This document shows, piece by piece, positions 9,708 through 44,060 of a stretch of 64,000 nt of DNA. The notes under the pieces are model-generated. The model was not told the DNA's origin and did no database searches. It saw only the letters and a program-made list of their open reading frames with translations. Position 1 is the stretch's first letter; every line of letters begins with the position of its first letter. Both the position numbers and the translations under genes were made by a program. This DNA is from Isoetes taiwanensis (Eukaryota > Streptophyta > Lycopodiopsida > Isoetales > Isoetaceae). Location: positions 571,654 through 635,653 of the forward strand of contig JAJEKV010000114.1 of the NCBI GenBank assembly GCA_021234155.1, read 5' to 3'.

Positions 9708-9742
<35 letters not shown>

Positions 9743-13524: not shown

Positions 13525-13617
13525 ATAGTGTGAGCGTGGATAATGTGTATTTCATCCTTCGGTCCTTTGACTACGAGACCTCACGTATTGACTCAATCCC
13601 CAAGATTGAGGACTCGG

Positions 13618-15201: not shown

Positions 15202-15213
15202 TGGTATCAGAGC
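15202..15213 (+). other. primer-binding site for initiator tRNA-Met
   Basis: An exact TGGTATCAGAGC, complementary to the 3' end of plant initiator tRNA-Met, immediately downstream of the truncated LTR. It sets the element on the plus strand. Confidence 0.85.
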
Positions 15214-15687: not shown

Positions 15688-15696
15688 ATTTCGATC

Positions 15697-15742
<46 letters not shown>

Positions 15743-15990
15743 AGAGAGAGAAAGAAGTTTTTTAGTCATTAATTATAGAAAACAATTACATAATGTCATA
15801 GGTATCTTCATCAAGATAGACCCTTAGATTTAAGCTAAAAATATTCTAAAGTAGCTTAAAATAGCAGAAGTGTAGCAAAATAATATAGTTTGAAAATTTT
15901 GGATCCGAGGAGAATTGTGAAAGAAAATTCCTGAATCCCCAACCAGTTGAATCTTTAAGCCAAACTTGTACCTGGTAAAAGCAAAGTAAA

Positions 15991-20271: not shown

Positions 20272-20292
20272 GATAATATGGAGAATATCAAT

Positions 20293-22938
20293 CTAGGATT
20301 TGAAAATCTCTTTGGCCTTATTCCTGGTATTACTTGCAGGGGTACCTAGATTATTAAGAATTCTATTAGAATGCTTAATTTTAGCTTTATTTTTAACCTT
20401 CCCCTTTTTAGATTTAGGATTGGCAGATAGAGTAGAGGATGAGAAAATTAATAAATAAGAGTCATCTTCCCAAGAATCATTATTAACAATATTTAAAGCA
20501 CTATTATTGAGCTCATTTTCTTTGTCAGAAATATCAATATCAGAGTTTACCTGGTCAGATACATGAGAGCAACTCCAGAATTTAGATCCACAGCAAGGAC
20601 TTGGGTTTGAACTTGTGTCAACATTAACAACAGTGGCTAAAATTAAACTATTATCAATAGGGTTTAGAACTTGCCTGGATATTGCCACATCATCATTTTT
20701 GTTGTCAACAGATAATTCCTGAGCTTTGTGAATTAATTCCTCATCATGAAAGTCGTTTTCCTTGTTTTCCTACCCTATATTCATCTCAACTGTACCAATC
20801 AAATTCTCTATTCTGTTAAACTGCCTGTTCTTACCACAATTTTCAGAATCATGAATTGAGCTTTTACTGCCATCTGTCTCAGCTTGAAGGTCTGAGTTTC
20901 TGTTAGGAAAACCTTGACCATCAACTCCCACATGCAACTCTGCTAGCTGTTGAGCTACTTGATTGGAGATATAACTAGAGTAACAAGGATTTTCAGGGTG
21001 AGAAGGATTGACAGAGTGAAGTTGAGAGTCAGATAGGTCAATAAAAGGGAGGGGGAGGGAGGGGGGGATCATAAGTGATAGGATGAATGGAAATAGGTAT
21101 GGTAGAGGCCATATTTTTCAAGCTGAGGATGGATCCACAATGTCATGCAATGCTTGATGTCATTTAGGTGAGCTAGGATACCAAAGTTATTTGAACATTG
21201 GATTTTTGCTTGGAGATTCCGATTTTTCAGAATTAACAATATCTGAAATATTGCTTTCTATAATTAATGACTCTTCTTTATCCCTTGAAGTCTGTGGTTT
21301 GCAACCGAGAGTTGAGTGGCAAGTTTGTTTGGGATTATCATGGATCTTAATCCCAACGTGCCTCTCTGTTGCTACCTTTTTGGAGTCCAGCATAATATCT
21401 TTAAGGGTTTGATGCATATCAATGTGTTTTTTCTGAGTTGAGTGCTGAAGTGGAGCTTTACCCTTAAGATCAAATTTATTCTGTGCTCTGCTGGTCACCT
21501 CAGTTTTTTGAGCTGATATGCCAGTATCCAGATGTTTACTGTTGTCATTGCTGAAGTAGACACCCTTATTTAGAACTTTGATTGTTGAGGGTGCAAGCTT
21601 GAAAGAAGAAAACTTTTTGTGCATAAAGTTAGCAGCTGCATCTTCTTTTTCTAACAGTTGTTTATGCTTGAATTCTCTTTTTTTGAGAATTCTTTTTTTG
21701 CTACCATTGACTCTTCTATATAGAATCCAATCTTGAAGCTTGAAATTGTTGTAGTTAACCTCCTTTACTTGGTCCTGCTGAGATCGATGAACCACTTCTC
21801 CTAAATGAGACTGATTTCTCTGAGCCATTGCATTTTGCTTTTGCCATTGCTTTGTAGAATGAACAAAGTTATTAGTGTTTTCCTTGTCTCCATTTAGTTC
21901 CCCCTGTAATTCTCCTTGAACTTGACTTCCAGAATCTTTGAATTCCTTAAGACTGCAATTTGAGTGAATAAAGTGCCTGGTTTTGCAATTCTGACAGAAA
22001 TTTGGCAATCCTACACATCTTAGATTTAAAACCATAGGTTTGCCAAAGAAATCAATGAGGGGGATGGAGGTAGGAATTGGCTTAGTGATATCAAGTTGGA
22101 TATAGCATTTTGGAGGCTTATATGGAGAAAATTCAGAAGAAATGAAGGTTCCAAAGGTGTTAAAGATTTTTGAAAAACAATCTTCATTCCAATAGATGGG
22201 GATAGATCATTCATCTTGACGGATGCAATGAAGAATTTCCCAAATTCAACGATAGGCGAAAGGGATTCTATTTAATAAATGAGATCGGAAGGTGTTAAAG
22301 GTCGAGTGCCCCCGGTTTAAGCATGAAATTTTGCGGTTACTATTGCCACATTCCATAAGCAAGTAGGGATAGTTAAGCCAGTAAATAGAGTTTATAACTA
22401 TTCCCTTATTTAATCTGAGCAGATGGTCCCAAAGTTGTTGAATATTGACTCCAACTTTGTCAACAAAAATGACAACAGCAGTAGAGGACAATGACTCAAT
22501 TTTAGAAGCAATAGAGGAGTTGTTTAGATGAATACCTTTGAAGAGTTGGAGGTCAGGTCGGGACAGGTATTGAAGGTTGTAGAATTCTTGCGTGAGCTCA
22601 TGATTGGAAAGAATTTGTTGTGCTGGTCTTGGATCCCCATAATGAAAGGGCACCCCATTTGCATCAAGGATCGGTGAGAAGCCATCAAATGCTGGGTCTT
22701 TAGAAAGATTGTCCCAGTGAGGAACATCTCTGGAAATGTGATGCATCTCTTTTGACAGAAAATTTAAGTCAGCAAAGTCTCCAAATTTAATCACCTTTGA
22801 GGGATCGGAATGAAAAGAGCTTAACTGTTTTAGCAGGTCACCTCTTTGGTCGGGAACAAGATGCATAAACTTGTGCGAGAAGAATGAGGGAGTTGGCATT
22901 TAGGTTTTGAAATTTGAATTTTTGAATTTTTTGGCCAT
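20293..22938 (-). pseudogene. LINE ORF1 (nucleic-acid-binding, Cys/His knuckle), broken, copy 1
   Basis: On the minus strand several open segments in changing frames make up a protein of roughly 880 residues. They include a conserved N-terminal block (FMHLVPDQRGDLLKQLSSFH, at about 22870), a DUF4283-like segment (AVVIFVDKVGVNIQQLWDHL), and then a knuckle (FCQNCKTRHFIHSNC) with unusual spacing: C-x2-C followed by His at x3 or x6, then Cys. A long Lys/Ser/Asn-rich tail ends FKS* at 20293, 22 bases before the ORF2 start. ORF1 proteins of plant L1 elements bind the element RNA. Frame breaks lie near 22910, 22250 and 21180-20690. Confidence 0.75.
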
Positions 22939-23109
22939 CGAGGAAAGGCGGGGGGAAAACAGGGCTCCAAGAAAAACAGTATAAAGATCGACAATGGGAG
23001 CAATTAAACAAGACAATCAAGGAATAAGGTAGGCAATTGAAGGAAAATGCAAGAAGAAAGAAAGGAAAACCAAATTAAAGCCGAAAAGAACAAAACCCGA
23101 GCCATAACT

Positions 23110-23430
23110 CTTAAGGTCATTACGAGAACATCTTTACCATTATTTTGTTATCGCCCAATCACAAAAAGACATGAAAGATAGCTGTTGGAGAAGAGTTATG
23201 CTTCCTGTGAATTCAAGAACCAAGATTCAATAATTTCACTTTCGAATTCTTTTGATCCAGGAGTGAAGGTGTATTCAACTTGAAAAAAAGGTGATCGGGA
23301 ATACTTGATCGAATATAAGATATTTCCACATTTGGAGAAGGGGCCTTGAAGAAAACCACAAGTAATTCTACGCTCTGTTTGACATTACAAAAATTTTCCA
23401 TCCATATGAAGGGATTATAAGAATTCAAAT
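23110..23430 (-). pseudogene. extra 5' frame of the LINE, frameshifted copy
   Basis: This corresponds to the open 97-codon frame at 57643-57936 in copy 2. Here the frame is split by small indels, including several at sites that read CAG/CTG in the other copy. It sits between the LINE 5' end and ORF1. See the copy 2 entry for the protein description. Confidence 0.5.
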
Positions 23431-23573
23431 ATTGCTTGGCCTCTACAAGACCACGAGATCCGACTCAAATGGTTGATTCGATGAAATTCATCAAGATTGG
23501 TTTGAATCGAGAAAAGACAAACAATTCAAGAAAAATGGCGCTCTTATGCTGACGTGTCTCTATTTATCTTTGG

Positions 23574-24274
23574 ATTTCGATCCAAATTAATCCCAAAGCC
23601 CCGACAATGTAGACTGCATCTTTATGAGTCCCATTGTCTCGAGTTGCTGGTGATTAGAGTTTGCTTGTCAGTAGTTATGGTTAAAAAGTAGAGGATAGAG
23701 AACTTGTTAAACCTTTATGAAGTGGTTGGTGCCACTAGATGAATTATAAATCCATTTTATGATTGTATTGTATCCTTCTAGCAATTGCTCATGCCATTAA
23801 TATTTGCATAATATTATGGTTGATGCCATTAATATTTGATATTAATGGATGACATTGAAAATTTTAGATTGGTGTTTAAGATTTTGAGCAGTAGTTGGTG
23901 TTACTGGTTTGGTGCTTCAACAAAAAATCCACTGTTCTTTCTTAAACCTTACCATTCTTTGAATGCAGAAGTCTACTTTTAGTTAATTAACTTGATAATT
24001 GTCTTTCAATTCAATCCTTTCAATAACTTACTCCAATCCTTAGCCTTAAAATTGTAATTGCAGTAAATAGTTGTTGTTATTTATGAGATCATAACCCTAG
24101 CCCTTGGACCCTGAAGCGGAATGAGTTGGGGCTCGCATTACAATTGAATTGAGTTGGCGTTCATGTACAAATGGATGGAATGAATTGGTGCTCATATGAC
24201 ATAAATTGAGTTGGTGCTCAACTTGTAGTTGAGCCGGATACAAGCGAGGTCGGTTCTTCACAAAAAGGAGGAAT
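23574..24274 (+). mobile_element. 3' internal region and polypurine tract of the non-autonomous LTR element
   Basis: Resumes the LTR element after the LINE. It contains a run of related words built on TTGAGTTGG(T/C)GCTCA / ATTGGTGCTCATATG (about 24120-24225), a loose short repeat. It ends with a purine tract AAAAAGGAGGAA (24262-24273), the expected plus-strand primer just before a 3' LTR. No protein-coding potential is seen. Confidence 0.7.
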
Positions 24275-24964
24275 TGATATGAATATGGTAGCTTCGAAGG
24301 TGTGGTCTTGGGCGTTAGTTTTGGTGGATCAACATGAAGTTTGACAAATAATTGGCAAGGCAAGATAAGCAAAAAGGCAACCTATGGTCTATATTTAACT
24401 ATGATGCTAAAAAGGCTTGTAAAATGAAAAGTGTTTTAAAGTCATAGCAAGAGAGGTCCATAAATAAAAGCTAAACTTCAATTACACATATCTCACTTAA
24501 CCAAAGATGGGATTTAGGCGATTTTTACTTCTATGGAACCGTCGAGTCTACTTTTGAATTGGATCGAGTATTTTGTGGTCTAATTTGTCGAACGAGAAAG
24601 ATATGATAGAAAAGAGTGGCAAGAGGTCAAAAAGGCTGCTAGCTTGAAGAAGCTACTAGTGGAAGGCGATTATGCGGTCTTGCCATAATTACGCCCGGTT
24701 CTTAGAACCGATTGATCCCGATTGGGTGTGAATTACTATGACTTGGTTATTGGTTTGGATCCCTCTCTAGTTTTGGTGAACTGGAGTTTGATTACAGAAG
24801 CTATTGGTGTAACTTATGGCACAAGGTCCTTAAGTTGATTTTGGAGGTTTGGCCAGCATCTCAAGTTAATTGAATAAGCTGTGTTCATTTACTTTTCACA
24901 TTGAAAAAAAAGATTATTTGTCTCTGCTAACAATTTCATTTGTGGATAATATAGCAATTCTAGA
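24275..24964 (+). mobile_element. 3' LTR of the non-autonomous LTR element, truncated
   Basis: Begins TGATATGAATATGGTAGC directly after the polypurine tract and follows the full-length minus-strand LTR (26811-28142) until CTAGA at 24964. There it meets the inverted second element after a 78 bp spacer. The last part of the LTR (about 130 bases before the primer site) is missing in this orientation. Confidence 0.75.
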
Positions 24965-25042
24965 TTATAGTATCTTTTATATCTCCAAAGCTATATTACG
25001 ATACTTTGTCAGATAAAGCAAGGTGACACAAACTCCAAACCA

Positions 25043-26810
25043 TCTAGAATTGCTATATTATCCACAAATGAAACTGTTAGCAGAGACAAATGACCTCTTT
25101 TGCAAATATGAAAAGCAAATGAACATAGCTTACTCAATTAACTTGAGATGCTGGTCAAACCTCCAAAAACAACTTAAAACCCTATCTTGGGAAAGTTACA
25201 CCAATATGCATGTAACCAAACTCCAGTTCACCAAAACTAGAGAAAGATCCAACTAAATAACCAATTCATGTAGTTCACCGCCTAACCGGATCAATCAAGG
25301 CTAAGAACTAGCAGAATTATGGCAAGGCCTGACAATCAGCTTCCACTAGTAGCTCCTTCCTCGAACTAGCAGTCCTCAATGTAGAACACCAAGAGTTAGG
25401 CTGAGGGGTAGTAGTAGGTTATTGAGCAGGAATAGCAGAAGCTCTAGGAGAAAGTAACGGCTTTCTTTGAATCAAATTCAAGAGCGAAGGAGTAGAGCAT
25501 TCTTCTTTGACCCCCTGTCACTCTTTTGGCCCTCTCTCTCATTCAGACGAATTAGACGAAGTGCTACCCCAATTCGAAAGCTAGACTCTGAGATGTTTCA
25601 GAGAAGCAAAAATCGCTCAAATCCGATCTCTAGTTGCGGATATATGTGTAACTGAAGTTCAGCTTTTATTTATAGACTTCTGCTGGGGCTTTATCCCTTT
25701 TTATTTTGCAAGTCTTTTTAGCATCATAGTAATTCATTCCATCATTTGTACATGAGCACTAATTCAATCCATATGTTTATGAGCATTATCTCTCAATCTA
25801 ATTGTACGTGAGCACCAACTTAACCTGTTTCAGGGTCCAAGGGCTAGGGTTATGATCTCAAAAATAGCACCAATTACAATTTTAAGATAGATGGATTGAA
25901 GTAAGTCATTGAAAGGATTGAATTGAAAGACAGTTATCAAGATAATTAACTAAAAGTAGACTTCTAAATTCTGAGAATGGCAAGGTTTAAGAAAGAATAA
26001 TGAATTTTTATTGAAATCAACCTCAACCAGTAGCACAACTATTGCTCAAAATTTTAGATACCAATCTAAAATTTTCAATGTCATCCATTAATATCACATA
26101 TGTATGGCATCAGCCATAATATTATGCAGATATTAATGGCATGAACAACCATCAGAAGGAAGCATTAAAATCATAAAATTTAATTTACAATTTCTCTAGT
26201 GGCTCCAACCACTCCATAAACTTTTAGCAGGTTCTCTATCCTCTACCTTTTAACCACAATTACTGACAAGCAAACTCTAATCACCAGCAGCTAGAAACAA
26301 TGAGACTCATAAAGATGCAGTTTATATTGTTCGGACTTTGGGATTAGTTTGGACAAAATTAGATTCGTCGACCATAGATATAGAAAGAGTTGAATCAAAG
26401 ATCCATCCCGACCAAAGAGATGGACTGTTAGTTTTCGTTAGGCTTGATTTGAAGGAGATCTATTTTGGAAAAATGAAATGTATTTATAAGGTAGGATAGG
26501 CTCAGTTCCCACTGCTTATTCCAAATCACTTGTACCTAATAGATTCATATATGTTTATCGCAACAGAAAGAATTCATCATACAAATATTCAAAGACTATT
26601 CTAGAAGGCTCTCTTGCTTTTAAGACAATCAGATTGGTAAGAATAAATCAAATAAATTAAATTCATGGAGAGGAATCATTTGGTTTTTCAGGATAAGGGT
26701 TTCTACTCTGAATAGCCAGAATAAGAAACTCTATTCCAGTTTGCAATCTCCAGCACCAACAGGATGACCTGTAAATGTCAAGAATAGCCAAGCTCTGATA
26801 CCAATTATTA
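25043..26810 (-). mobile_element. inverted second LTR element: partial 3' LTR and internal region
   Basis: Read on the minus strand from 26810 this has a primer site (26792-26803, exact TGGTATCAGAGC), an internal region matching 15214-15687 plus 23574-24200, then a 3' LTR missing its first part. The junction of the two internal halves at about 26345-26360 is uninterrupted, so it is the empty form of the site where the LINE sits in the plus-strand element. Confidence 0.75.
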
Positions 26811-28142
26811 TGGATCACTCCAACGATCCATACCTTTTGTATCTCTAAAGCCATATTATGATACTTTGTCAGATAAGCAAGGTGACACAAACTACAAACT
26901 ATCTAGAATTGCTATATTATCCATACTGGACATTATCCAGGTACCTATTGATGAGCTATTCTTTGTTGACCCCCCTCTGGTGTTTGAGATCAAGCTGGAT
27001 TGCCCTCCCCCCCCCTCCCCCCCCCCCTACACACAATGCCCCTCTTTGCTACACACTCTTTCCACGATCTCCCTGCCATCCCGGATTCCCTGTTGAACTT
27101 ATCTCCTTGCCCAATTCATGATGCCTCCCTTCCAATTTCCCAAAATTCTGCTCCCTCGACTCCACGGTATTTTTGTGAAGATGGTTCTTGATCAGACTTT
27201 ATATTTTGTGCCAAATGGCTGATTGGTTCTCTTGCTTTCTGAGTTTAATTTTTTTCTTTTATATGGGCTCTGAGCCTTATTTTGTATGTTTTTAATTTAT
27301 GAGTGATACAATCCTTCCTTTTCCTCAAAAAAAAAAAAAAAAAAAAATCCATAAATGGAACTGTTATAAATAACCTCTTTTGTGAAAAGCAAATGAACAC
27401 AACTTACTCAATTAACCTGAGAAGCTAGTCGAACCTCCAAAACCAGCTTAAGAACCCTGTGCCAGAAGTTACGCCAATAGCTTTCGTAATCAAATTCTAG
27501 TTCACCAAAACTAGAGAAAGATCCAACCCAATAACCAATTCATAGTAGTTCACCACCCCTCCGGATCAATCAGTGCTAGGAACTGGCAGAATTATGGCAA
27601 GGCCTGACACCAAGAGTTAGGCTTCCACTAGTAGCTCTTCCCTCGAACTAGCAATCCTCAATATAGAATACCAAGAGTTAGGCTGAGGGATAGTAGTAGG
27701 TTATTGAAAAAGAATAGCAGAAGCTCTAGGAGAAAGTAATGGCTTTCTTTAAATCAGATTCAAGAGCGAAGGAGTATAGCAGTCTTCTTTGACCCGCTGT
27801 CACTCTTTTGGCCCTATCTCTCTCATTTAGACGAATTAGACAAAGTGCTTCTCCAATTCGAAAACTAGACTCCGAGACAGTTCCAAAAAAGTAATAATTG
27901 CCTAAACCCTATATCTGGTTGAGGAGATATATGTAATTGAAATTCAACTTCTATTTATAGACCTCTGCTGCGACTTTAGCCCTTTTTATTTTACAAGCCT
28001 TTTTAGCATCATAATTGAATATAGACTATAGGTTGCCTTTATTGCCTTGCTTGCCAATAATTTGCCAAACCTAGACACTCATGCTAGTCCACCAAGACGT
28101 TAACGTCCAAGATCACACCCCCGAGCTACCATATTCATATCA
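26811..28142 (-). mobile_element. 5' LTR of the inverted element (full length, with LINE-tail insertion)
   Basis: On the minus strand the LTR runs from TGATATGAATATGGTAG (28142) to GTGATCCA (26811), with TG...CA ends, and is followed by TAATAAT and then the primer site. It is interrupted by a 421 bp poly(A)-tailed insert. Without the insert and its target duplication it is about 0.9 kb. Two CCAAGAGTTAGGCT words about 70 bases apart lie near 27610-27690. Confidence 0.75.
26926..27346 (+). mobile_element. 5'-truncated LINE 3' fragment with poly(A) tail
   Basis: An insert flanked by the 7 bp repeat ATCCATA (26919-26925 and 27347-27353) and ending in about 21 A residues, hence plus-strand. The first 250 bases read as a Pro-rich open frame (ILDIIQVPIDELF...), possibly the C-terminus of a LINE ORF2 of another family. 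A T-rich 3' UTR follows, with ATGGGCTCTGAGCCTTATTT. A C-rich tract (27001-27026) is longer here than in copy 2. Confidence 0.65.
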
Positions 28143-28535
28143 AAATATTGGGCCGATATGCTCGGGGAGCGCCATTAGTGATATCTCCCTGGCAGAACGT
28201 GGAGACATGACAAATGAACACCTTGTGCCATCAAATGCAGCTGTATTTATACCCATAAAATTATTGATGTGCATTGTAGCAATATTATTAAGTATATACG
28301 AGTATCGTATCATGTACATCTCTATATATATGATCTGTCGTATTACGTGCAATAATTTAATTTAATGTATATACCTTCAATAATTCTGGTGGCTATCAAT
28401 GCACCAAATAATTTTGTATGTATATACCAAATAATTTTGTTGGCTATTGATAATTTTGGTGGATACTTGAGCTTAAGAAATAGGTGAAAATACTTGAGCT
28501 TAAGCAAGTTAACTTAATTTAAAATTCTCAAAATT
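28143..28535. other. AT-rich interval, no gene seen
   Basis: Sequence between the inverted LTR and the copia pol remnant. It contains alternating AT runs and repeated words (CAAATAATTTTG, GATAATTTTGGTGG, TACTTGAGCTTAAG twice). Nothing codes convincingly. Confidence 0.5.
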
Positions 28536-29620
28536 GTGTTATTCTCTCCAATTAATGAAATCCTGTATTTTATGGCCTCAAACAAGCATCTCATGGTTGG
28601 TTTTTCAAATTTGACACCTTGGTCAAGCATTTCGGATGCAACAGCTCAGAAGTGGATCCAAATGTTTATGTTTGAGCAAGACTCTCGCATTATTCTTATC
28701 GTGTTGTATGTCGATGACATAGTTCTTCCAGGGAATCATCCTCCTACCTTGATCATACCAAGCATTGCCTAGGTCTCAATTTCTGATCAAAGACATTGGG
28801 CCAACATCCTTCTTGGCTCTCCTTGAGCTTATCCTTGACCGCTTTGGCATGCAAAGTTGCAAACCAATTTGCACTCAATGGAATTCGATCTCAGACTCTT
28901 TAAAGACAAGCCTCCCGCAGTCCCCTTTCGGTCTCTCATTGACAGCCTTATATATTTAATGATCTGCACCCGCCATACGATCTCTGTTATTCAGTGATAA
29001 CCTTGAATCAATTCAATGATGCTTATGCCTCTCACCAGTGGGAATTAGCGAAGTGCATCCTCCGCTATCTTCAGGGCACTCTTCGTCATGGCCTTTGCTA
29101 CTCCAACCGAATTTTTCAGAATCTTACAGCATACATTCATGCAAGTTTGAGCAGAAATGCCAAAGGTACCTCTATCGCAGGTTTTATGCAAGTTTGGGCA
29201 CAAATGCCAAAGGTACCTCTGCCACAGGTTGATGCTTTTTCTATTATGGCAGTGTCATTATGCAAGTTTGGGTACAAATGCCAAAGGTACTTCTACCACA
29301 GGTTGATGCTTTTTCTACTATGGCAGTGTCATTGCTTGGTTGTCCCATAAGCAGGTTATTGTCGCTCTTTCTTCTGCTGAATCAGAATATCTTGCTCGAC
29401 TCTTGGTCAAGTTCTCTCGACTCTTAGACAATGTGGTGCATCACTCACAGGTGCATATTCCAGTTTCTTTAGACAATCAAAGTGCTATTTGCATGGCTGA
29501 AGAACCTGCAACTCATAAGCGCACCTACCATATTCCTCTTCACTATCACTATGTGCGCCAACAAGTCGATGAGGGATTTCTTCAACTTTTCTTCGGATAT
29601 AGTGGGATCAATGCCTTGAT
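28536..29620 (+). pseudogene. Ty1/copia pol remnant (reverse transcriptase C-terminus and RNase H)
   Basis: Frames in succession encode the copia RT active-site region (IILIVLYVDDIVLPGNH, about 28690-28735), the RT-to-RNase H connection (SLIDSLIYLM, LAKCILRYLQGTLRHGLCYS), and the RNase H end (SHKQVIVALSSAESEYLARL, about 29340-29400, then LDNQSAICMAEEP and HKRTYHIPLHYHYVR). At least three frame changes and stops make it non-functional. In copia elements this region copies the genome and degrades the RNA strand. No LTR of its own is recognised nearby. Sequence from 29620 to about 29800 stays open but is not recognised. Confidence 0.85.
29139..29333 (+). repeat. internal triplication in the copia RNase H region
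   Basis: Three consecutive units start ATGCAAGTTTG(A/G)G at 29139 (47 bases), 29186 (74 bases) and 29260 (74 bases), each containing AAATGCCAAAGGTAC. They correspond to the RNase H segment that normally occurs once (…NAKGTS(T/A)TG… block). The third unit continues into the normal downstream sequence. It is present unchanged in copy 2. Confidence 0.85.
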
Positions 29621-29799
29621 GCGAGATGGTGATCCCGGATGGTCTTTGAGCACCGGAACTTTCTATATAATTGTACCTTCCCAGGTATTTAGAGCAGATA
29701 TAGTATTTGGGATCAATGCCAGTTTGAGCTGTTTTCTGAGATGGTACGGGCTCAAATCGCTTCCTCTCTTCCCGTTAAAAGGCGGATGGTGCTTTTGAT

Positions 29800-31188
29800 T
29801 CAAGCACCAAAGAAGACCAAAACTCTTGCTTGGTTTTGGCCAGAAATACCACTTTTTATAACCCCTTTTGAAATATTTCCTTCTGTCATCCGGACAATAT
29901 CATACAATATCAAAAAGTTCCTTGTTCTTGTTTGCTCATTTTGTCTCTTATTGATCCTGCATTCACAGTAGAAACAATATATAAAATTGTTGTCTGCCCC
30001 GTCAATCCCAGTCATTGAAGAGGCCCAAAAGCTATGATTCAAGCTTCAAAACGCAATCTTCTGATTTGGGTGGCTCGAATTCGGCTTGAATTTGGCAATT
30101 TATTTGTTTAAGTGGGAATTTTGTATCATAAAACCATGCTGGGTAAAATTTCAGGTTGGAAAAATCAGTTACTGAGGTCTATGGAGGTACCAGACATGGC
30201 CAAAAACAGCTAGGCTGGTTGGAAATATGAGGGCCAGAAGCTGCAGATTTGCGACCAGGTCGAACTGCCGTGAGAGCTTTTTGGCGGCCAATATTTGGCC
30301 TTTTGTGCATGCCAATATTTGGTTCTTTACTTTTGCCAATGGTCCATACTGAAAAAACTTCTTTTTTTATTGAATTTTTTGCAACGACACCATCACTATT
30401 GCTCCCCATTCGAACAACTACACAAAATTCAGAGGATAACAATCAACTGGATGGCAGAGCTAGAATGAATACCATGAAAGATCAACTAAGAAAAAAGTAG
30501 AGATTCAAAGCTTTAAAATTCACATTCCTTGACTTTGTAGATAAGCCATCATATAGCAGCATCCACAAAACAAGATATCTACAACATCATGTGGAAAAAC
30601 TATAAAGACAAGCAAAGAGATGCCAAGCAAAGTTGGCTAACTCAATGGCAGTAATATCAATGGTTAACTATTTAGTTGTTATTTATCCGTGCAAAGGATT
30701 GAGGGGTGGAAGCACATGATCAGTAGAAAATTGTCGTGGGAGATAGTACATGGAAGATGACACTGCCCCAATTGTGAAAGAGGATGATCCGACCCAGATT
30801 TCAGCAAGCATTGGCATGTGCTTTGTCCACATCTCTTAGCTTGCTTGCACATCAATGTTCAGTACAATTATTTGGGTTCTGAGAACAGATTTACTTTGCC
30901 ATTTCCAATGATCAATGGCATTTGTCTTTCAGCATCATTGAAGTACTTGCCATGAGTTGCCTTGAGAGCCAACATTACCTCTGTAACTTAACTTCCGCCT
31001 CAATTCATTGTCAAAGTTCTCCTAAAAGGTGAGGTGGGCGTTCTATGGAATAATATTATGGTAAAAATGTAAAATGTGAAGGTAGGCATCAGATTTCTCA
31101 AAAAAGATTTTGCTGAAGCCACTGGACATCTGTTAGTGCACTGCAAAATATTGTATCAGAAGCTGAAAAAATAGAACCCTTCAATTAT
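29800..31188. other. interval without a supported gene
   Basis: Between the copia remnant and the RtcB-like gene. Short frames exist on both strands (for example 30179-30442 minus) but none resembles a family. The sequence is moderately AT-rich and seen once in this window. The 3' flank of the RtcB-like gene presumably falls here. Confidence 0.5.
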
Positions 31189-32516
31189 CTAAATTTTGCA
31201 TGTTAACAAAGGCTTCATCACTGCAACCACAGTTATCAAACCCACGTTCACAAGATCATCAACCACATCATCAATGTTTTTGTAGGCCTCGGGTGCTTCT
31301 TGAAGTAACAAGCTCTTATCTTTATATACCACATAAATATCTTGAAATTGGCTTTTGAAGTTAGATGATGTTATGCGCTTGCGCAATCGTTCTTCCACTT
31401 CACTTCTAGAGTACAGCCTTCCAGCCCCATGTGCTACAGATCGATTATATCGTTTCTGGATTTCTTCATCGTCTGTAGGACGAACAATGTAGGTATATGT
31501 ACCACGTGAACCTGGTATGGCAATTAAACCTTTATTTGTGGGAGCGACACCTTTTCTGTGCAAGAATAATCCGTCATCAACAATTTCCACATTGTTGTGA
31601 CAAATATCTAACACAGTACCTTCAAGAGAAAGACTGCAATTATCGGCAAATGTCTCTGCAATTTGTTGCCTATTCTTCTTTGCCCATTCTACAGCGCAAT
31701 CGTGATATCTTTTATACATTTCATGGTCGTCTTGATACGTTTTCAAAATGAATTCTCCCAAGGTCCTGGATCCACTGTGAACTAAAATGTAAAGAGAATT
31801 TATATCCAGAAGATCAGGAACCAAGAGTTTCTCTACCGATTGCAACTCTGCAAAAATGATTACCTGCCCCTATGGTTCCAAACACATCGTCATGACTCTT
31901 TACAAATGGATCTATATATCCTGCAGAGTTGCCCCAAAACTTGTGTTTCCAAGAATGCCTACTAACTTTTCCAACTCTCTCTTTGATAAAGGAAGACTTA
32001 TGATGTGTGGAAAAAGAGTCATTCCACAACCGATGTCTTGGCCAACAAGTCCAGGATAAAGTATGCGGCTAAGACATGCTGCACCTATAGGAAATTTATT
32101 TCCAGGATGCAAATCTGGCATCCCAACGCAAAGAATCATTCCAGCAATTTAGAAACATTCTTCAACTGCTCAATCGCATATGCATTTACATCTGTACGAT
32201 TTTTCACGATAACGGTCTCTCCCATACTATCTTCCATGTTTGATTGCTGTGTTTTTGCATTTTCCACAGGAGTCTCCCCTTCTGGGACAAGAAGAACCAA
32301 GGTATCATTTTCCAAATGTTGGACCTCTTCTCCAGTCATATCCTCTAGGTAATTGCCTTTCATATAGAACTTGATACCCCGGCCTCTGTCAAACTTGTTC
32401 TTTGCAAATGTCGCAAGAACTTTCTTCAATTCTAAGATGGAATTGAACTTCGCAACACATAGTTTAGAATTGGCATGGTCGTTGTTACAAGCAACATTGA
32501 ATCTAAGAGTAGGCAT
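31189..32516 (-). CDS. RtcB-family RNA ligase (RtcB2 / release-factor-H-coupled type), small frame breaks
   Basis: On the minus strand: an N-terminal extension of about 100 residues (MPTLRFNVACNN..., possibly a beta-grasp domain), then the RtcB core. Visible motifs are GMPDLHPGNKFPIGAA, LVGQDIGCGM (Cys metal ligand), GTIGAGNHF (metal-binding His), ILVHSGSRTLG, DICHNNVE, HRKGVAPTN, IPGSRGTYTYIVRP, SVAHGAGR (the His that is guanylylated in RtcB) and LLLQEAPEAYKNIDDVV near the end. RtcB joins RNA 3'-phosphate or 2',3'-cyclic phosphate ends to 5'-OH ends using GTP and Mn2+. The total length and the PDLHPG..PIGAA, APEAYK and KPLLT endings fit the short family coupled to release factor H in bacteria. 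Frame changes lie near 32140 and 31940, and an extra T near 31855 breaks the frame between NHF and the AELQ-like continuation. The last 218 codons (31845-31189) are intact. No intron is visible. The breaks could be decay or sequencing indels. Confidence 0.8.
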
Positions 32517-32952
32517 GATTGCAAGATAGTTTACAAATTTATACAGGAATTAAAAAAAAGTACCCGGGTTCAGAGCTCCAAGAGATCGTAGGGCTCGCCT
32601 TCAGCTTGGTCGAGCAGTGTGATCCGTGCTATTTCAGCGCAGGGCGGAAAAAAAAAAAAACCGTGAATTGCCCGTAATCAGTATATTGGGGCGAAATCAC
32701 ACTACTGGACACGCCCAAAGTTTTTAGAAAAAGTCTCCTCAAGAAAAATTTCAACTTTTTCTAGAATTTCCTTCTACTTCTGTGCAATTCGGTTGTGGAA
32801 GATGTGCCGACGTGCATTAGCGTGGAGGCACATCTGACCACACAAATTACAAAGTAAAATTATTGAAATGTGAAGTTCGGTTACTTTCAATTTAGGCGAA
32901 AATCTCTGGAAGAATCTTCAAAAACATCCAGGAAAATGGTGAAACTCATCGT

Positions 32953-33323
32953 AACACAAACCATTACATTACACACCTTAAAATTAAATTCCCCTTAAAC
33001 CCCCTCTTGTTTGGGTGCATATTCACCTGGGGGGGGTGACTCCGGACAGCGAGAGCTTTTAAGCGGGCATATTCACCCATTATTCCTTAATCTACACTGT
33101 ACACAAAATTCCTCGTATGGATGTATAGAAATTATGATACTGTATAATAAGATTTGAGAAATACTATAAGATTTCAGGTAACATACTATATGGTTTTGAT
33201 TTTGTGCGTACAAAACATAATTATCGGGGCTCTTTGCCCCACGTCACCCGTGTGAATATGCACCAAACAAAGGGGGTTTAAGGGGAATTTAATTTTAAGG
33301 TGTGTAATGTAATGGTTTGTGTT
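32953..33323. mobile_element. MITE with about 80 bp terminal inverted repeats
   Basis: The left end ACACAAACCATTACATTACA through CACCTTAAAATTAAATTCCC and CCTTAAACCCCC is matched in reverse complement at the right end (33240-33323), with a few mismatches and a GGGTGCATATTCAC inner part. The element is about 370 bases, AT-rich inside, with no ORF. TA flanks each end, suggesting a TA or TWA target site (Stowaway- or PIF-like); the superfamily is uncertain. A second copy of the end sequence (TGTAATGGTTTGTGTTA) lies at 33385-33402. Confidence 0.75.
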
Positions 33324-33404
33324 ATAACTTTAAAAAATTTTGCCGGGCAAAACAAACATTATATATCACACTTGGAAACATTAGATGTAATGGTTTGTGT
33401 TAGA

Positions 33405-33761
33405 TTAAAAAATTTTGGCCTTCAAGGCCTTGCCTAAAACAATATAGTCGTGAAGAGCACTTAAACCATGTGCTTTGCCATGGCACATTGCCCTTGCATA
33501 GGGTGTTCTAAATTGCAGCATAACAAATGGATGGGCATAAACTCCGAAATGAACATAAATACTTGAGCACTTCAACCCGGAATAAGCACAACTTTTTACA
33601 AGAACTTCGAGGGGTATTCTATGTTTCAATAAGGCCCCATTGCCAAGAAAATCACTTGTATTTCTTGCTTCATAGCCTTGGGCCCATATGTATCTCAGCG
33701 ATTGTAACAATCTAGCGTGGTGCAATTCCGGCCCCCGATATAGGACAATCCACGAGTTCAA
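33405..33761 (-). CDS. hypothetical ORF, 118 codons
   Basis: Open minus-strand frame with ordinary amino-acid composition (YRGPELHHARLLQSL, SGLKCSSIYVHFGVYAHPF). No family is recognised and no second copy is visible for comparison. It may be a chance ORF or a decayed fragment. Confidence 0.2.
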   Translation of the reverse strand: MNSWIVLYRGPELHHARLLQSLRYIWAQGYEARNTSDFLGNGALLKHRIPLEVLVKSCAYSGLKCSSIYVHFGVYAHPFVMLQFRTPYARAMCHGKAHGLSALHDYIVLGKALKAKIF

Positions 33762-35823
33762 GCTTCCTAAGCTTCACATAACCCGGACAAAGCTCCGAAC
33801 CCCTTATTATTCTCTCCAACACAGCCAAAAGAAGCCACCTAATCTTTCCACCATATCTGCCAATGTGGGCTAAACCTTCATTTGTAAGTCCACCATGGTA
33901 TACAAATAGCCAAGCGAACCATATTTGAACATCCCTCTAGCAAATTGTTCCGCCATCATCAAATGAAGGTGTGGTTCTCATGTCACTCTCTAATAAAGCT
34001 ATTCTGAAGTCCACCAAGTTTGGACATGACTCTCCAGAATGCGAGATAATCTTTGAACTGGTGATATCTGATGCATAAATTGCAACGGTGTAAACATCTG
34101 CGGTTTTGAGCCAGATAAAGTAGCCCCGATGTGATACAAAACCATGTTGGTCCTCTAAATTTTCAATCCGAAGACTCTAAGCTTTTTTACGATTGGAAGG
34201 CACTAAATAAGGAAGTGAGAATGCTAGATCTTCAAGCCGAATGTCAAATCTTGAAGCCTATTCTTGAAGCCCAGTCTGAATCTTGAAGCATGTCAAACCT
34301 GTGAGCTTTATTGCTTTCGATTCTTGCCTTCTTTCTTCCTAACCCTAAAATAACCCTAAAAAATATGATGGCACGATGCTTGCATGCAAAACTCTGAATG
34401 GCAACTAAAATAAAAGGGGCTTTTGTTTGTGAGCCCTTGGATGTTGGACCATTGTAAAACTCCAAAAATAAAAAAAAAAGCTAAAAAAATCACTTTCTAT
34501 GTAGAAAATGTGCGACTAAGAAATGGTGCACTCTAGATATGCGCATTAGTACATCCATTCCAAATCGCCATGAAATCTTAGGAAAACCTTTGTGAAAAGC
34601 GTGCAAAAACACAAAAAAACCCCACATTATTATTTTGCATATTCATCCTCCGCTTTTAGTTACAAAAGTTACTAACATTCCTGTAAGGAATTGTTGCCAC
34701 GTGGCGCAGCGTGGTTGGACAAGGGGCCTGAATTGAAGGTAACCGAACTTTACGTTGGGCACATCTCTTATCACACTGGGGGTGCCCAGAACGCATATAC
34801 AAGAAAACTGGGTGCGCCCGGGGAATCCTAATGGGGGGCTACTCCTGCCGAAGATCTTAGCCACCGCCATTTGTAAAAATATTGGTGTGCCACGTTGCTT
34901 ATGAATGTAGAAGCCTAAAGATTAGGGTTCTTATGGCAAAAATATGGTTCTTTTACATGCAATTTAGAATCGTTTGGGGGGCCTTCACATTAGATTTTGC
35001 TGGCGAGGAACAACAAAAAATCATTGCGATGCATCTCAAGCGAAATCAAACAAATTTGTGCGGATTTGCTTTGAAAAATCCGGATATTTTTGCTCGTCGG
35101 GATCTTTTCGTTTTGAAGAGGGTTTTGACTAGTATGTAGGACCAAGAGCAAAAATCAACGTCGATGCAATTTTTTCTTTTTTGAAGGACTTGAGCCTTTA
35201 TTATCGAGGAAAGTTACAAGCACAATGGGGACTAAAAAGCTTCGATGGAGAGAATGTCAGTAAAGCAAATCCACCCCTCCGATACAACATCTAAGCGGTA
35301 TGAAGAGCAAGTAAAATCTCGCTTGAGGAAGTGTGAATGAGATAGTGCTCCCAAATGCGGCTCTTTACCTCATTGGCGGTGGTAGGCTTATATAAATGCT
35401 TTGACAATTACGTTGTTGGGTATAAGGACACATTGCATCTGACGAGCAAGACATTTGAATATAGAAGATTCCTTCTTTTCAAATGGACCATCTTGAAGAC
35501 CAATGAAATGACCTTTTTTGCCAAATTTTCCCAACCATTTGGATAGTACGCTAATAACACCTGTAATTTATTCAAATTGCATGATCGATGTGATTTGCCA
35601 GTTTGAAGCACATAATCATAGTTTTTTCTCCCAAAAGGGCAGCATATATAGCTCAACAAGCGGCCGCGATTTTTGGCGTAAATTACATCTTGGGCGCAAG
35701 TGTGACCTTTGGTTCTTGGGCATCTTTATCCTCTGGCGAGACTTGAAAACTGATTCTTGGTCAGCGGAAGTGTGATTTCAACCCTAAGCCTGATCTAAAA
35801 GTATATTTGGCAGGCTTGCCTCC
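33762..35823. other. end of the duplicated unit, no recognised gene
   Basis: About 2 kb with only short open frames, the longest plus-strand one at 34882-35139 (85 codons, unrecognised). There are no terminal repeats or RNA genes. The 35640-35823 stretch directly precedes the start of copy 2 and does not resemble the sequence before 1217. Confidence 0.5.
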
Positions 35824-39348: not shown

Positions 39349-40816
39349 GACTCAATTTTCCAACGTCTTTTCTCTTTTATTGTAGTTCGGTATGCAAAAC
39401 CTGTTTTTTGTTGCTTTACTTGCGATTCGCTAGAGCCCATATAGCAATGTCCTAGGCCCAGAGACTAGAGCTTGGGTAAATGCTTTTGCAACCACATTCA
39501 GTACATGTAAGCGATGTTCAATGCAAATGGCACAAAATGATAATGCATTTGGGAAGAAGATTTTGATTTGTCTACTTTCAAATCGATCATCTTCAATCTA
39601 GGTGCATTAAAACAACACATTGAATAGTTAAAGCTTCGTTGTTAGAGGAGCGAGGTGCTGCACATTAGGCCATTGGATATGGAACACTTAATTGCTTGAA
39701 CTTGTTTGTTGCATACATGCAATGATTTGCTATGATTTAAATTAAAAGTTATTTATTGTTGTTATTTAAAAAGTTCTCACTGAAGGTCCTAATGGTATAC
39801 TTTTTTTATTTACCAAATATCATGAGCGGTTGTGGGTTAAGAATGCGTACTTGTGGTGATTTTAAACTCCAAAATGTATTATATGCACCAAGATTTTAAA
39901 ATTTATGCTTATTATTACATACGATTCGCTTTACTTTTTTGTCAATTACAAACAATAACTTTGCATTTTTAGCCATCATAAGCATGCTTATTTTCTTTCT
40001 GCGACCATTTGGTGAGCATACAGGATTCATGTGGAAGGTGCATAACTTTTAATATTGCTCTGGTGGATATGATTTAGATGGTGAATTAAGATATTCGGTT
40101 TACTTCTTTTACTTAGTGATCCTTTTATAGCCCCTATTTTCAATTTTTGAAATATTTTTTACAACCTACATACCTAGGTGACCTTTGATCAACATTGACA
40201 AGCGACTTCAACTTCACATACTTATATTGTGAATATAATTTCATACATGACAATGCGGCGTCACATAAATATCTCATCTCACAGGCCGACCACTTGAGAA
40301 TTATGAAGAGTCCATCGCTGCATAGCTTTTTTTAGGGTTTCTTTCGCCTCATACTTTTTAACGACGGAATCAAATGATGATTCATCATTTTGGTCTTCCT
40401 TTAACTAGATCATGTCCTTGCATAATACCGTATCATACAAACTTCTTCCACGGCCTATGTTATCTTAGACAATCACATTTTAACACCATATAATGTGCCT
40501 TGCAACATGGAAATAGTTGTAGCCATATTGAGAACAAATACATATTTATAAAACCATTGACTATACCGATTGTTCCATTCAAAGTGTTAGTTTATACTTC
40601 TATTTCCTTGCTTCGTCTACATCCCTGTAGGGCTCAAGGTCACATTAAGTTGAAGATTTCTATATCAAAATTTTATTCAATCTAGCAAAATTAAATTCAT
40701 CTCACCACTAATCATCTCACGCGCGATTTGTAGGTCGATCTCCAACCATGAAAATAATTGCAACATTTTCCTAGCCAACAAACAAACAACCACCTCCCCT
40801 TCAAATCGTTACATTT

Positions 40817-40844
40817 AAACCCCGTGGCCGGCACCATAACTAGT
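40817..40844 (+). mobile_element. Helitron 3' terminus, hairpin damaged, copy 2
   Basis: Counterpart of 6281-6312. The CTAG-T end (40840-40844) is intact, but the hairpin reads CCCCGTGGCCGGC and can no longer form the perfect 6 bp stem. Confidence 0.6.
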
Positions 40845-41220
40845 TTATTTTAAGATGGCATGTATTTATCTAAGTTTTAATAAATGAAGAAATTAGCTTG
40901 GAGATAAAGTAGTCATTTTTACTCTACAAACTGAATCCAACAAAGGACTAGTTTGAAGTTACTTTGTATTTGTCCACGTGGAGGAGTGTGATGGTATCTT
41001 AGTGGTAGTTGAATGAGGAGAAAATACATTCCAATGACACATTCCAATGACAATCTATTAACCACGATTCCACTTTCTCTTAAAGCTTGTTTTGTAAAAT
41101 TGGGTCTAGCAAGAGGTTGTTGACTAAGGAGCAAATACATCTCTCTAACAACCCTATTAACCAATTTCCACTTTCTTTTAAGCATTTTTATAAAATGGTC
41201 TAGCCACTTTGGACCCTTTA

Positions 41221-41424
41221 CAATGGTTTTGGAGCAATATATTTATGTATTTATAATTTACAAAATTCTAAGTAAAGGACTTTTAAGCCAATGGTTTTGG
41301 AGCAATATATTTATATAATTGCGGATTTACAAAATTCTAAGTAAGAACTTTAAGCCAATGGTTTTGGAGCAATATATTTATATTTATGTATAAATTGCTA
41401 ATTTACAAAATTCCTACGCAAGTA
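41221..41424 (+). repeat. 3 x 68 bp tandem repeat, copy 2
   Basis: Units begin CAATGGTTTTGGAGCAATAT at 41221, 41289 and 41356. Copy number matches copy 1, so the array was present before the duplication. Confidence 0.8.
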
Positions 41425-41584
41425 ACTGGGGTATAGATCGATAGATAGATAGTAAATGTTGGTGGCGCCATGAATTTCTTGTCTAAAATTTTGCTGAAAT
41501 TTTAAAGCAAATTAATTTTCTGAGGAGCGGATGATACTGATTAGGAAGAAAATGTAGGACGCCATAGCCAGAAGGAAACGAACT

Positions 41585-43362
41585 ATGGAGAATTGCTCTC
41601 TTCTTATGGGGGCTATACCAGAATTCAATCCTCACATGCGCGCCCTCTCATGCTCCTAGCACACCAAACAGGTTACAATATGCAGATTTAATCCGGCACT
41701 GCGGCAATCACAAAGGCCTTCATGAGGGGTAAAACGCTACATATGCACCTTCTGGCAAACAAACTGGAGCGAGACAGGTATCTGGCTAACCTTCTCATAG
41801 AGATGTATGGAAAATGCAGTGCTTTGGAGAGTGCATGCACTGTTTTTGTGCCTTACATCAACCCAACCTTTTCTCGTTTAATCTCATGCTTGCAGCATAT
41901 GGCCGGTGTGGCGATTTGGAGGGTGCTCAGGGGTTTGTTTTGACAATATGGTTTGGCGTGATTTGATCTCTTGGAATGCTATGCTTGCTGCATATGCTCA
42001 GAATGGGCAGGGCATGGATGCCATTATCTTCTTTCAGAAAATGCAGCAGCAAGGGCTTAGCCTAGACAAATTCAGTTTTGGAGCCGTGCTTGATGCTTGC
42101 GCTGGAGAAAGGAGCATAATCCAAAGGTAGGAAAATTCATACCTTCATTCTTTTAACAGGATTTTTAGATGATTCTTTAGGTACTGCCCTCATCAATTTT
42201 ATGGTAAATGTGGTTGCGTACATGAAGCTAAAATTATATTTGATACTTTACCAAATCATAATATAGTTTCCTGGACTGCCATGATAGTGGATTTGTTCAG
42301 AATGGGTTTGTAATGAGGCCCTGAAACTCTTTCAACATATGCAGATGCTAGGAGGCTCCAGATATGTTCACATACTCTGCAGTACTAGATGCTTGTGCTT
42401 GTGTAGTGGATCTGGATGCAGGAAGAAGCCCGAACACATAATCTCATTTTGCATGAGGGATTGGGATTGAATATTGCTATTGGGAATGCACTTGGTTCAT
42501 ATGTATGGGAAGTGTGGAAGTATAAAGAAGCAAGGGCGGTGTTCGATGCAATGCCTCAGCGCGATGTCATATCGTGGACCTCTATCCTCACAGCATGTTC
42601 CCAAGGTGAGCATGCTAAAAAACTCTCCAACTATACAAGGAAATGCAGTTTGTGGAGACAAAACCAAATAAAGTTACATATATGTTGCAGCCCTTGTTTG
42701 CATGTGCTTCATTAGGAGCCTTAGAACAAGGCAAAAAATTCACAAACCAAATTGCTTATGATAAGTTTGAGGCAGGCAGATTATTGGCAATGCTTGATTG
42801 ATATGTATGGCAAATGTGGCAACCTGCATGATGCACAGAAAATGTTTGATAAAATGCTTTACCATGATGTCATTTCTTGGACTGCCATTCTTGCAGCATA
42901 TGCACAGAATGGGATGGTAATAATGCTGTCCACCTATTCCAGCAAATGCACCTGGAAGGCGTGATAGCAAACAAGGTCACATTTAATATTTCTTTCAGCA
43001 TGCAGTCATGGGGAAAGTTCATTGAGGGCTGTCATCATTTTCTTTCCTCGAGTACAGAGTATACATTGGCATCTTCCCCAGAGCTTCAACGTTGTGTACT
43101 AGACCTGCTTGGGCGTGTTGGTAAATTAGATGAAGCAGAAGATATTATCAAGTATGCCTTTTGAGCCAGTTGTTATTTCTTGGATTACCTTGCTTGCTGC
43201 CAGCAAAGTCCATGGGGATCTGCAACGTGGGCAACGTATTGCGGAGTATGTACATAGACTTGACCCAGAGAATGCAGCATCTTATCTTCTCTAGCGAACA
43301 TATATGCCCTTGTTGAATATAAAGACTGGTCAGAAGGGTTAGGCAGCATTGTCTTTGATTGA
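41585..43362 (+). pseudogene. PPR protein, frameshifted copy
   Basis: Over 95% the same as the intact gene at 7050 by eye, but with many one-base insertions or deletions, for example CGCGCCCTCTC (extra C, about 41646), CACAAAGGCC (extra A), GTTTTTGTG (one T fewer) and CCAAAGGTAGG (extra A, about 42125). Local sense frames survive as 41722-41943, 41906-42130, 42416-42715, 42752-42964 and 42877-43164. The stop codon is the same (43360-43362). The bias to homopolymer indels and the lack of premature substitutions suggest sequence error as much as genuine decay. Confidence 0.8.
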
Positions 43363-44060
43363 ACATGTTCTATATTCACTTTAGGATCCTCTTATATATG
43401 CTGGCATTTGTGGAATCAACTCTGAATAAGACCGGGTAGAGTTGCTGATCTAGAGCTCATTTGTCTATCAGTATCTGCTTGCAGCTTAATGGGGTGAATA
43501 TTGCTTTTCGTGCTCATCCGTAGCTTAAGGATGCCTCCTCATCTTAGTTTCTTTTGGTATGCCAGCATTCAATCGGGCTGGATCCTCTCCTGATGCAGAA
43601 AAGAAGATCGTACCATATGCAATGGCTGTGTATTCAGCAAAGTTGCTTATCAGAGTTACAACAAGAGTCACACCAATTGAAGGAATTTAGGAGGCGCCAT
43701 CATGTAAGCGTTAAAGCAAATGAGTTATATAATTGCCAGACTAATTATCAGCGAGGACATGATCCAAGATGTTTCGCCTCAAGGGGAGCGGCCATTCATT
43801 TATTTACAATTGAAAACCTGGTCCTAATCATATGCTTCAGGAAAAGTTGGCAGCATATTTCCTTTCTCATTTTCCAACTGTCATGTCAGGTTACCAATTT
43901 CATATTTATAAAAAATTATCATCCATAACGAAGTATAAGTTTTTGTTTGATGGATATGGTAAAACTTCTAATTCAAGGGAGGAGATAAGAAATGTCAAGT
44001 GATGAGGAAGTTAACTCGGGTTCGACTTAAAGGCTTTTTTTGGATAACGATGGATAAGTA

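What the first reader, a model, noticed from the sequence alone, without database searches (positions are those of the whole stretch)
31189..32516. RtcB-type RNA ligase of the release-factor-H-coupled kind in a plant genome
The catalytic and metal-binding motifs (DIGCGM, GNHF, HSGSR, HRKG, SVAHGAGR) are all readable. The motif wording PDLHPG..PIGAA / GSRGTYTYIVRP / EAPEAYK is closer to the short bacterial RtcB family paired with PrfH (repair of damaged ribosomal RNA) than to tRNA-splicing RtcB of animals and archaea. Well-studied land plants splice tRNA with a different ligase (Trl1/RNL type). An N-terminal extension of about 100 residues is fused in frame before the core. This could be an overlooked RNA repair enzyme in seed-free plants, an old bacterial acquisition, or a contaminant-free nuclear pseudogene.
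Basis: partly seen in the sequence, partly recalled or inferred. Interest (0 to 1): 0.78.

Follow-up and report, generated by a model that had tools for sequence, protein, structure and literature searches.

The report
Bacterial-type RNA repair ligase in quillwort
A seed-free land plant carries, in its own nuclear DNA, an RNA-joining enzyme of a bacterial ribosome-repair type that land plants are said to have lost; the copy in this window has a broken reading frame, but an intact one lies 34,000 bases away.

Summary
In detail: window 31189-32516 (minus strand) encodes an RtcB-family RNA ligase with an N-terminal extension of about 95 residues. In the window the frame is broken by five one-base length differences. 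A second copy 34.3 kb away on the same 2.65 Mb contig (G000:C924:637150-638478, outside the window) is one open frame of 442 codons. It exceeds the TIGR03073 (release_rtcB) cut-off (284.6 vs 271.8 bits), keeps the active-site positions and nests in the PrfH-coupled 'RtcB2' clade on its longest end branch: an old transfer from bacteria, not a recent contaminant. No PrfH over cut-off and no archease was found. The frameshifts look more like nanopore run-length errors in a near-identical tandem duplicate than like pseudogene decay. Most likely a working, PrfH-independent 3'-phosphate RNA ligase; activity and expression are unshown. Recent papers call RTCB 'entirely lost' or RtcB genes 'mostly absent' in land plants, so this is surprising, but it is a new host and form of a known enzyme. 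Other plants could not be tested here.

The parts
32232..32516 (-). N-terminal extension, residues 1-95 of the predicted protein, absent from the six bacterial relatives aligned
   Evidence: no Pfam match over cut-off and no NCBIfam match; residues 1-100 found in G000 only in the two copies
31189..32231 (-). RtcB2-type ligase core, frame broken in this copy; C-terminal open part 31189-31869
31814..32068 (-). 84-residue open piece in another frame, carrying the GTIGAGNHF motif
29900..32610 (.). stretch almost identical to the second copy: 3 substitutions and 9 length differences, each a gain or loss of a base next to an identical one; 7 of the 9 in runs of three or more
5458..35820 (.). left unit of a tandem segmental duplication of about 30 kb holding the broken RtcB2 copy
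40010..64000 (.). right unit of the duplication; it runs on beyond the window to C924:641792 and holds the intact RtcB2 copy at C924:637150-638478 (minus)
7023..8834 (+). PPR-repeat gene (603 codons open; E-motif match under its cut-off) inside the left unit: plant context

Best explanation
The locus is one of two tandemly duplicated nuclear copies, in a quillwort genome (Isoetes, most likely I. taiwanensis), of a single-exon gene for a 442-residue RtcB2-type RNA ligase of bacterial descent, with an N-terminal extension of about 95 residues of unknown origin. SHOWN: an intact reading frame in the second copy, family membership, retained active-site positions, plant context; no PrfH over cut-off and no archease found by the searches run. 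INFERRED: the enzyme binds Mn2+ through the Cys/His/Asn set (C164, H221, H247, H307), is guanylylated on H363, and seals RNA 2',3'-cyclic-phosphate (or 3'-phosphate) ends to 5'-OH ends, restoring RNA cut by ribotoxin-like or stress endonucleases. It works without PrfH. The extension serves as a targeting or partner domain. The frame breaks in the window copy are most likely assembly errors in a near-identical duplicate that short reads could not polish.
For: Intact 442-aa ORF at C924:637150-638478. TIGR03073 284.6 bits, cut-off 271.8; Pfam RtcB 3.6e-58. Of 16 positions checked, 15 are identical in 11 of 11 aligned proteins and the other (R338) separates RtcB2 types from other RtcBs. Trees: plant inside the RtcB2 clade, in a 58-row part with 100/100 (101 rows); 47 RtcB2 rows with the plant set apart with 100/99 from 7 other RtcB paralogues of five relatives' genomes plus 4 viral RtcBs (58 rows). 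Plant end branch 2.08 and 1.87 against medians of 0.25 and 0.42. Core GC3 0.33, near the local PPR gene (0.376) and LINE (0.374); median of 80 bacterial relatives 0.69, though 13 of 80 are under 0.45. PPR gene and LINE in the same window. PrfH-less RtcB2 also occurs in bacteria: 17 of 80 loci without prfH nearby; 14 of those 17 genomes searched, 0 of 14 over cut-off. rtcB2 alone, on a high-copy plasmid, restored colicin E3 resistance in E. coli (PMC9223846, abstract seen). Near-identical stretch: 3 substitutions against 9 run-length differences; the I. taiwanensis assembly is nanopore miniasm+racon+pilon (PMC8566536 passages).
Against: No transcript, orthologue or activity could be tested. NF007153 (PRK09588 equivalog) cut-off not met (330 vs 407). 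The N-terminal fold is unresolved (pLDDT 59.7, no significant fold match). No sister group is resolved, and a long branch makes the exact placement unsure. In most of the bacterial relatives (62 of 80) the ligase goes with PrfH, which was not found here. One of the three substitutions in the coding stretch changes a residue, and two of the nine length differences are single versus doubled bases rather than long runs, so true decay of the window copy is not excluded.
Confidence: 0.7

Rival explanations
1. The window copy is a true young pseudogene: after a tandem duplication and gene conversion one copy lost its frame, while the second copy stays functional.
For: Frame really broken in the assembly; tandem duplication of about 30 kb with patchy divergence of 0-15.7% per 500 bases, so a recent conversion tract over the gene is plausible; two of nine length differences are single versus doubled bases.
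Against: In the near-identical 2.7 kb there are 3 substitutions but 9 length differences next to identical bases, in coding and non-coding parts alike, 7 of 9 in runs of three or more. Neutral decay gives mostly substitutions; uncorrected nanopore reads give run-length errors.
Confidence: 0.27
2. Both copies are relics: a bacterial gene that was captured but is not expressed or functional in the plant.
For: No transcript evidence available; the duplicated unit holds retroelements; no partner (PrfH over cut-off, archease) found.
Against: An uninterrupted 442-codon frame with the active-site positions kept after about 2 changes per site on its branch is not expected without selection for most of that time.
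Confidence: 0.12
3. Bacterial contamination of the assembly.
For: [quoted passage not shown]
Against: Both copies lie in a duplicated segment of a 2.65 Mb contig with a PPR gene and a LINE; GC3 near that of these neighbours; the best bacterial relatives found are only 43% (tblastn) or 46% identical, and the branch is long; no Shine-Dalgarno-like context seen before the ATG by eye.
Confidence: 0.02
4. A remnant of the vertically inherited green-algal (animal/archaeal-type) tRNA-splicing RTCB.
For: A 2026 review says green algae retain RTCB while land plants lost it (PMC13247085 section 14 read).
Against: The best solved relatives, archaeal and human RtcB, score 97 and 74 bits (phmmer), against 274 bits for the bacterial RtcB2 L019 (tblastn, another program). 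The tree separates it from other bacterial RtcBs. Archease was not found. No algal, animal or archaeal sequence was in the tree.
Confidence: 0.04

Closest known systems
RtcB2 / release_rtcB (TIGR03073), the ligase of the bacterial RtcB2-PrfH ribosome rescue-and-repair module
   Same: Core matches at 37-43% identity (80 loci, tblastn); TIGR03073 cut-off met; active-site positions kept; nests in this clade
   Different: Nuclear gene of a land plant, tandemly duplicated, extra N-terminal ~95 residues, no PrfH over cut-off found in the genome and no match on this contig
Other RtcB (E. coli RtcB1, archaeal RtcB, animal HSPC117/RTCB)
   Same: Same chemistry expected; Pfam RtcB; same metal and guanylylation residues
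   Different: 28-32% identity to five other bacterial RtcB paralogues aligned here, which form part of a separate side of the tree; archease, the partner of the animal enzyme, not found
Plant tRNA ligase (RNL/Trl1 type)
   Same: Both join RNA ends left by endonucleases (literature)
   Different: Different chemistry (5'-3' ligation after end healing; PMC3400036 passages) and unrelated protein (PMC13247085 passage); not searched for in this genome
Diplonemid RTCB1-3 (said to be three separate bacterial acquisitions in one protist group)
   Same: Precedent for eukaryotic gain of bacterial RtcB genes by transfer (PMC12699882 section 36 read)
   Different: Different organism; the relation of any of the three to the clade found here was not testable

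Membership tests
RtcB superfamily (Pfam PF01139) | Profile match over curated cut-off | tested here: met
   198.2 bits (intact copy) and 126.9 bits (window fragment) against cut-off 27
RtcB superfamily (Pfam PF01139) | Metal-binding and guanylylation residues | tested here: met
   D161, C164, N220, H221, E224, H247, H307, H363, K441 identical in 11 of 11 aligned sequences; roles of these residues recalled from the RtcB literature
release_rtcB / RtcB2 (TIGR03073) | Score over TIGR03073 cut-off | tested here: met
   284.6 vs 271.8 bits for the intact copy; the window fragment alone scores 171.7
PRK09588 equivalog (NF007153) | Score over cut-off 407 | tested here: not met
   330.1 bits
RtcB2-PrfH operon/module | prfH directly downstream | tested here: not met
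   None of the 9 TIGR03072 matches listed for G000 lies on contig C924
RtcB2-PrfH operon/module | PrfH anywhere in the genome | tested here: inconclusive
   0 of 9 matches over the cut-off; 4 of the 9 were read and look like RF1/RF2 GGQ exons, 5 were not examined; only 1 of 14 control genomes is over the cut-off, and the search is exon by exon, so a miss is not proof
RtcB2-PrfH operon/module | Re-ligation of cleaved rRNA | not testable with these tools
   needs an enzyme assay
Animal/archaeal tRNA-splicing RTCB | Archease partner in the genome | tested here: not met
   0 matches in G000 for PF01951 at E<=0.1; a miss is not proof of absence

The most novel reading that the evidence does not exclude
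A land plant lineage domesticated the ligase half of a bacterial ribosome-repair defence, gave it a new N-terminal domain and uses it, without PrfH, to mend rRNA or tRNA cut by microbial or stress ribonucleases: a plant RNA-repair immunity enzyme outside the RNL pathway.
Probability: 0.3. Interest if true: 0.82.

Novelty: new variant of a known kind. Interest (0 to 1): 0.62.

Why it matters
[quoted passage not shown] An intact RtcB2-type ligase in a lycophyte contradicts the first if 'RTCB' is taken for the whole family. It gives a testable case of a bacterial RNA-repair defence enzyme moving into plants, and it offers a plant with a possible direct 3'-phosphate ligation route beside RNL, which bears on how plant cells survive RNA cleavage by toxins and stress nucleases.

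Tried and rejected
Viral contigs as a bridge to eukaryotic relatives: a scan with patterns from the plant protein found nothing; the profile scan kept the best 80 of 255 relatives, of which the top four are 37-41% identical to the plant protein and the other 76 at most 30%. N-terminal homologue hints: the match from residue 43 in Nannocystis (L025) runs through a stop into a separate upstream open frame; the match from residue 7 in the viral locus L128 likewise begins in an open frame without RtcB motifs, and was not studied further. Fold of the extension: single-sequence model, pLDDT 59.7, elements in an order that could suit a ubiquitin-like fold, but no Foldseek match with E of 0.001 or less; not used as evidence. 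PrfH candidate L015: first thought promising (spans model positions 52-170), then read as an RF2-like exon. Cyanobacterial/plastid origin: in 386 genomes of the phylum of the Cyanobacteria-labelled relative L023, 6 match at E<=1e-50, that genome included, and the trees do not join plant and such relatives; no support. Contamination: rejected (see rivals). Dating by copy-to-copy divergence: rejected, because it is patchy (0-15.7% per 500 bases), as expected with conversion or assembly mixing. A first residue check used numbers one too low, because the alignment lacked the first Met; repeated correctly.

Full report
WHAT WAS CHECKED. The finding lies on the minus strand. Window 32136-32516 opens with a frame of 126 residues; the C-terminal frame is 31189-31869; between them the RtcB motifs lie in other frames. 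The C-terminal fragment alone matches Pfam RtcB at 1.7e-36 and NCBIfam TIGR03073 (release_rtcB) at 2.2e-50.

THE GENOME. The window is G000:C924:571654-635653; G000 has 1,658,258,908 bases in 1110 contigs and C924 has 2,652,954. The published Isoetes taiwanensis assembly is 1658.30 Mb in 204 scaffolds plus 909 contigs, 1113 in all (PMC8566536, passages seen). I infer that species from size, with three sequences unaccounted for; no name was given. The window holds a PPR-repeat gene (7023-8834; its E-motif match, 20.9 bits, is under the 27.3 cut-off) and a LINE with reverse transcriptase and endonuclease domains (52131-54794); three other frames scanned, two of them Copia-like by eye, matched no Pfam family at E<=0.001. 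Large PPR families are typical of land plants (recalled), so I take this as plant nuclear DNA.

THE INTACT COPY. A search of G000 with Pfam RtcB gave five matches, all in two places on C924: the window gene and a second copy at 637150-638478, minus strand. The second copy is one open frame of 442 codons from an ATG, just beyond the window end. It scores 284.6 bits on TIGR03073 (cut-off 271.8), 198.2 on Pfam RtcB (cut-off 27) and 330.1 on NF007153, below that model's cut-off of 407.

WHY THE WINDOW COPY IS BROKEN. The two copies belong to a tandem duplication of about 30 kb (window 5458-35820 against window 40010 up to C924:641792, past the window end; the two aligned blocks are 94.8% and 94.5% identical). 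Divergence per 500 bases runs from 0 to 15.7%. From about 29900 to 32610 the copies are nearly identical: 3 substitutions and 9 length differences (eight of one base, one of two), each a gain or loss beside an identical base. Seven of the nine lie in runs of three to six bases, two are single versus doubled bases. Five of the nine lie in the coding stretch, four of them in runs of three or more. Of the three substitutions, all in the coding stretch, two are silent and one changes a residue. Many run-length differences with almost no substitutions, in coding and non-coding parts alike, is what unpolished nanopore sequence looks like. The I. taiwanensis assembly was built from nanopore reads with miniasm and racon and polished with short reads; short reads cannot be placed well in near-identical duplicates. 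I therefore hold assembly error likelier than true decay, without proof.

WHICH RtcB. In plasmids, 95 records match the plant protein by tblastn; in phages, 343. All six plasmid neighbourhoods fetched (L009-L014) carry a PrfH-type gene directly behind rtcB: four by annotation, L009 and L013 by reading frames; five of these six PrfH proteins then served as the profile. Of these 80, 62 have PrfH beside rtcB (150 bits or more with the profile built here), 1 a weak match, 17 none; one of the 17, L032, has only 142 bases of room behind the gene. Of the 17, 14 genomes were searched for PrfH anywhere: 0 of 14 over the TIGR03072 cut-off, with 1 of 14 control genomes over it. So PrfH-less RtcB2 is not unique to the plant.

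TREES. Tree 1 (101 rows: plant; L009-L014; L019-L098; 14 of the 80 viral loci; the other 66 viral loci left out) puts the plant in a 58-row part of the RtcB2 clade with 100/100 support, on the longest end branch, 2.08 changes per column against a median of 0.25. Tree 2 (58 rows: plant; 46 RtcB2 rows picked from tree 1, two of them from viral contigs; 7 other RtcB paralogues from the genomes of five of the relatives, out of the 16 loci cut out; 4 viral) separates the 47 RtcB2 rows including the plant from the rest with 100/99; plant branch 1.87, median 0.42. No sister group is resolved in either, and the tool warns that long rows are placed unsurely. In tree 2 the bootstrap had not settled, and the other RtcB paralogues do not form one group. 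A recent contaminant would sit on a short branch beside a named bacterium; it does not. In 386 genomes of the phylum of G002 (the genome of the Cyanobacteria-labelled relative L023), 6 match at E<=1e-50, G002 included, at up to 46% identity, giving no support for a plastid origin.

ACTIVE SITE. In an alignment with 5 RtcB2 and 5 other RtcB proteins, 15 of 16 positions chosen are identical in 11 of 11 (D161, C164, N220, H221, E224, H247, R251, H307, N308, R321, H363, R367, E407, K413, K441); the sixteenth, R338, is Arg in the plant and all 5 RtcB2 and Met in the 5 others. An earlier try with numbering off by one is superseded. The roles (metal ligands, guanylylated histidine) are recalled from the RtcB literature.

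PARTNERS. Archease: 0 matches in G000 at E<=0.1. PrfH: 9 matches to TIGR03072, none over the cut-off, none on C924. I read four: two look like RF2 exons (L015, L018) and two, on different contigs, share the same RF1-like 60-residue frame (L016, L017); five were not read. Neither miss proves absence, since searches go exon by exon.

THE EXTENSION. Residues 1-95 have no Pfam match over cut-off and no NCBIfam match; residues 1-100 occur in G000 only in the two copies. A single-sequence model of the first 126 residues is poor (pLDDT 59.7) and has no significant fold match. The order of strands and helix would suit a ubiquitin-like fold, but that is a guess. With 12 basic and 13 acidic residues it does not look like an ordinary organelle transit peptide; no predictor was run.

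HOW IT MOST LIKELY WORKS. Shown: intact frame, family, residues, context. Inferred: Mn2+/GTP-dependent joining of 2',3'-cyclic-phosphate or 3'-phosphate ends to 5'-OH ends, used for RNA repair. That RtcB2 can act without PrfH has a precedent: rtcB2 alone on a high-copy plasmid restored colicin E3 resistance in E. coli (PMC9223846, abstract seen). The prfH-rtcB pair is described as a response to ribonuclease attack spread by horizontal transfer (PMC6514570, passages). Substrate and compartment in the plant are unknown.

AGAINST THE LITERATURE. PMC13247085 (section 14 read) says RTCB was entirely lost in land plants. [quoted passage not shown] The main text of the I. sinensis genome paper holds no 'RtcB' (PMC10541799, word search). 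Full-text searches for RtcB with Selaginella (0 papers), with lycophytes (0), with Physcomitrella (3), with land plants or lycophyte (two of three terms; 20 of 1,482 listed), with Trl1, plant, algae and tRNA ligase (four of five; 15 of 23 listed), with Archaeplastida and eukaryotes (4), with RNA repair and biological conflicts (8 of 14 listed) and with PrfH (9) listed no title reporting a land-plant RtcB2; most listed papers were not read. Two papers that would bear on it (Tian 2022; Burroughs and Aravind 2016) are not held. So I claim only that I did not find it in print.

VERDICT. A real, surprising gene: a bacterial RtcB2-type ligase in a lycophyte, intact in one copy, long resident, apparently without PrfH. 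It is a new host and form of a known enzyme family.

Noticed in passing
window 5458-35820 and 40010-64000 (to C924:641792): A tandem segmental duplication of about 30 kb whose divergence varies from 0 to 15.7% per 500 bases, suggesting gene conversion or mixed assembly of the two units.
   Followed up: partly
window 16-22 kb and 51-57 kb: The same LINE in both units of the duplication by reading-frame likeness; the reverse-transcriptase frame is long (887 residues, Pfam-checked) in the right unit and split in the left.
   Followed up: no
window 7023-8834: PPR gene with a single open frame of 603 codons inside the duplicated unit; E-motif match under its cut-off.
   Followed up: no
L014 (NZ_CP086440.1, 114889-121995): rtcB2-prfH on a conjugative IncC plasmid lies between a quinolone (qnrA6) and a sulfonamide (sul1) resistance gene: a ribosome-repair pair travelling with resistance genes.
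   Followed up: no
L023, L024, L031-L033, L041, L043, L049, L050, L054, L060, L061, L063-L065, L092, L097: 17 of the 80 best bacterial RtcB2 relatives show no prfH nearby (L032 has little room), among them Myxococcaceae and Verrucomicrobiota; 14 of those 17 genomes were searched and 0 of 14 has PrfH over the cut-off.
   Followed up: partly
L016 and L017 (G000:C907 and G000:C946): Two places on different contigs share the same 60-residue RF1-like exon frame.
   Followed up: no
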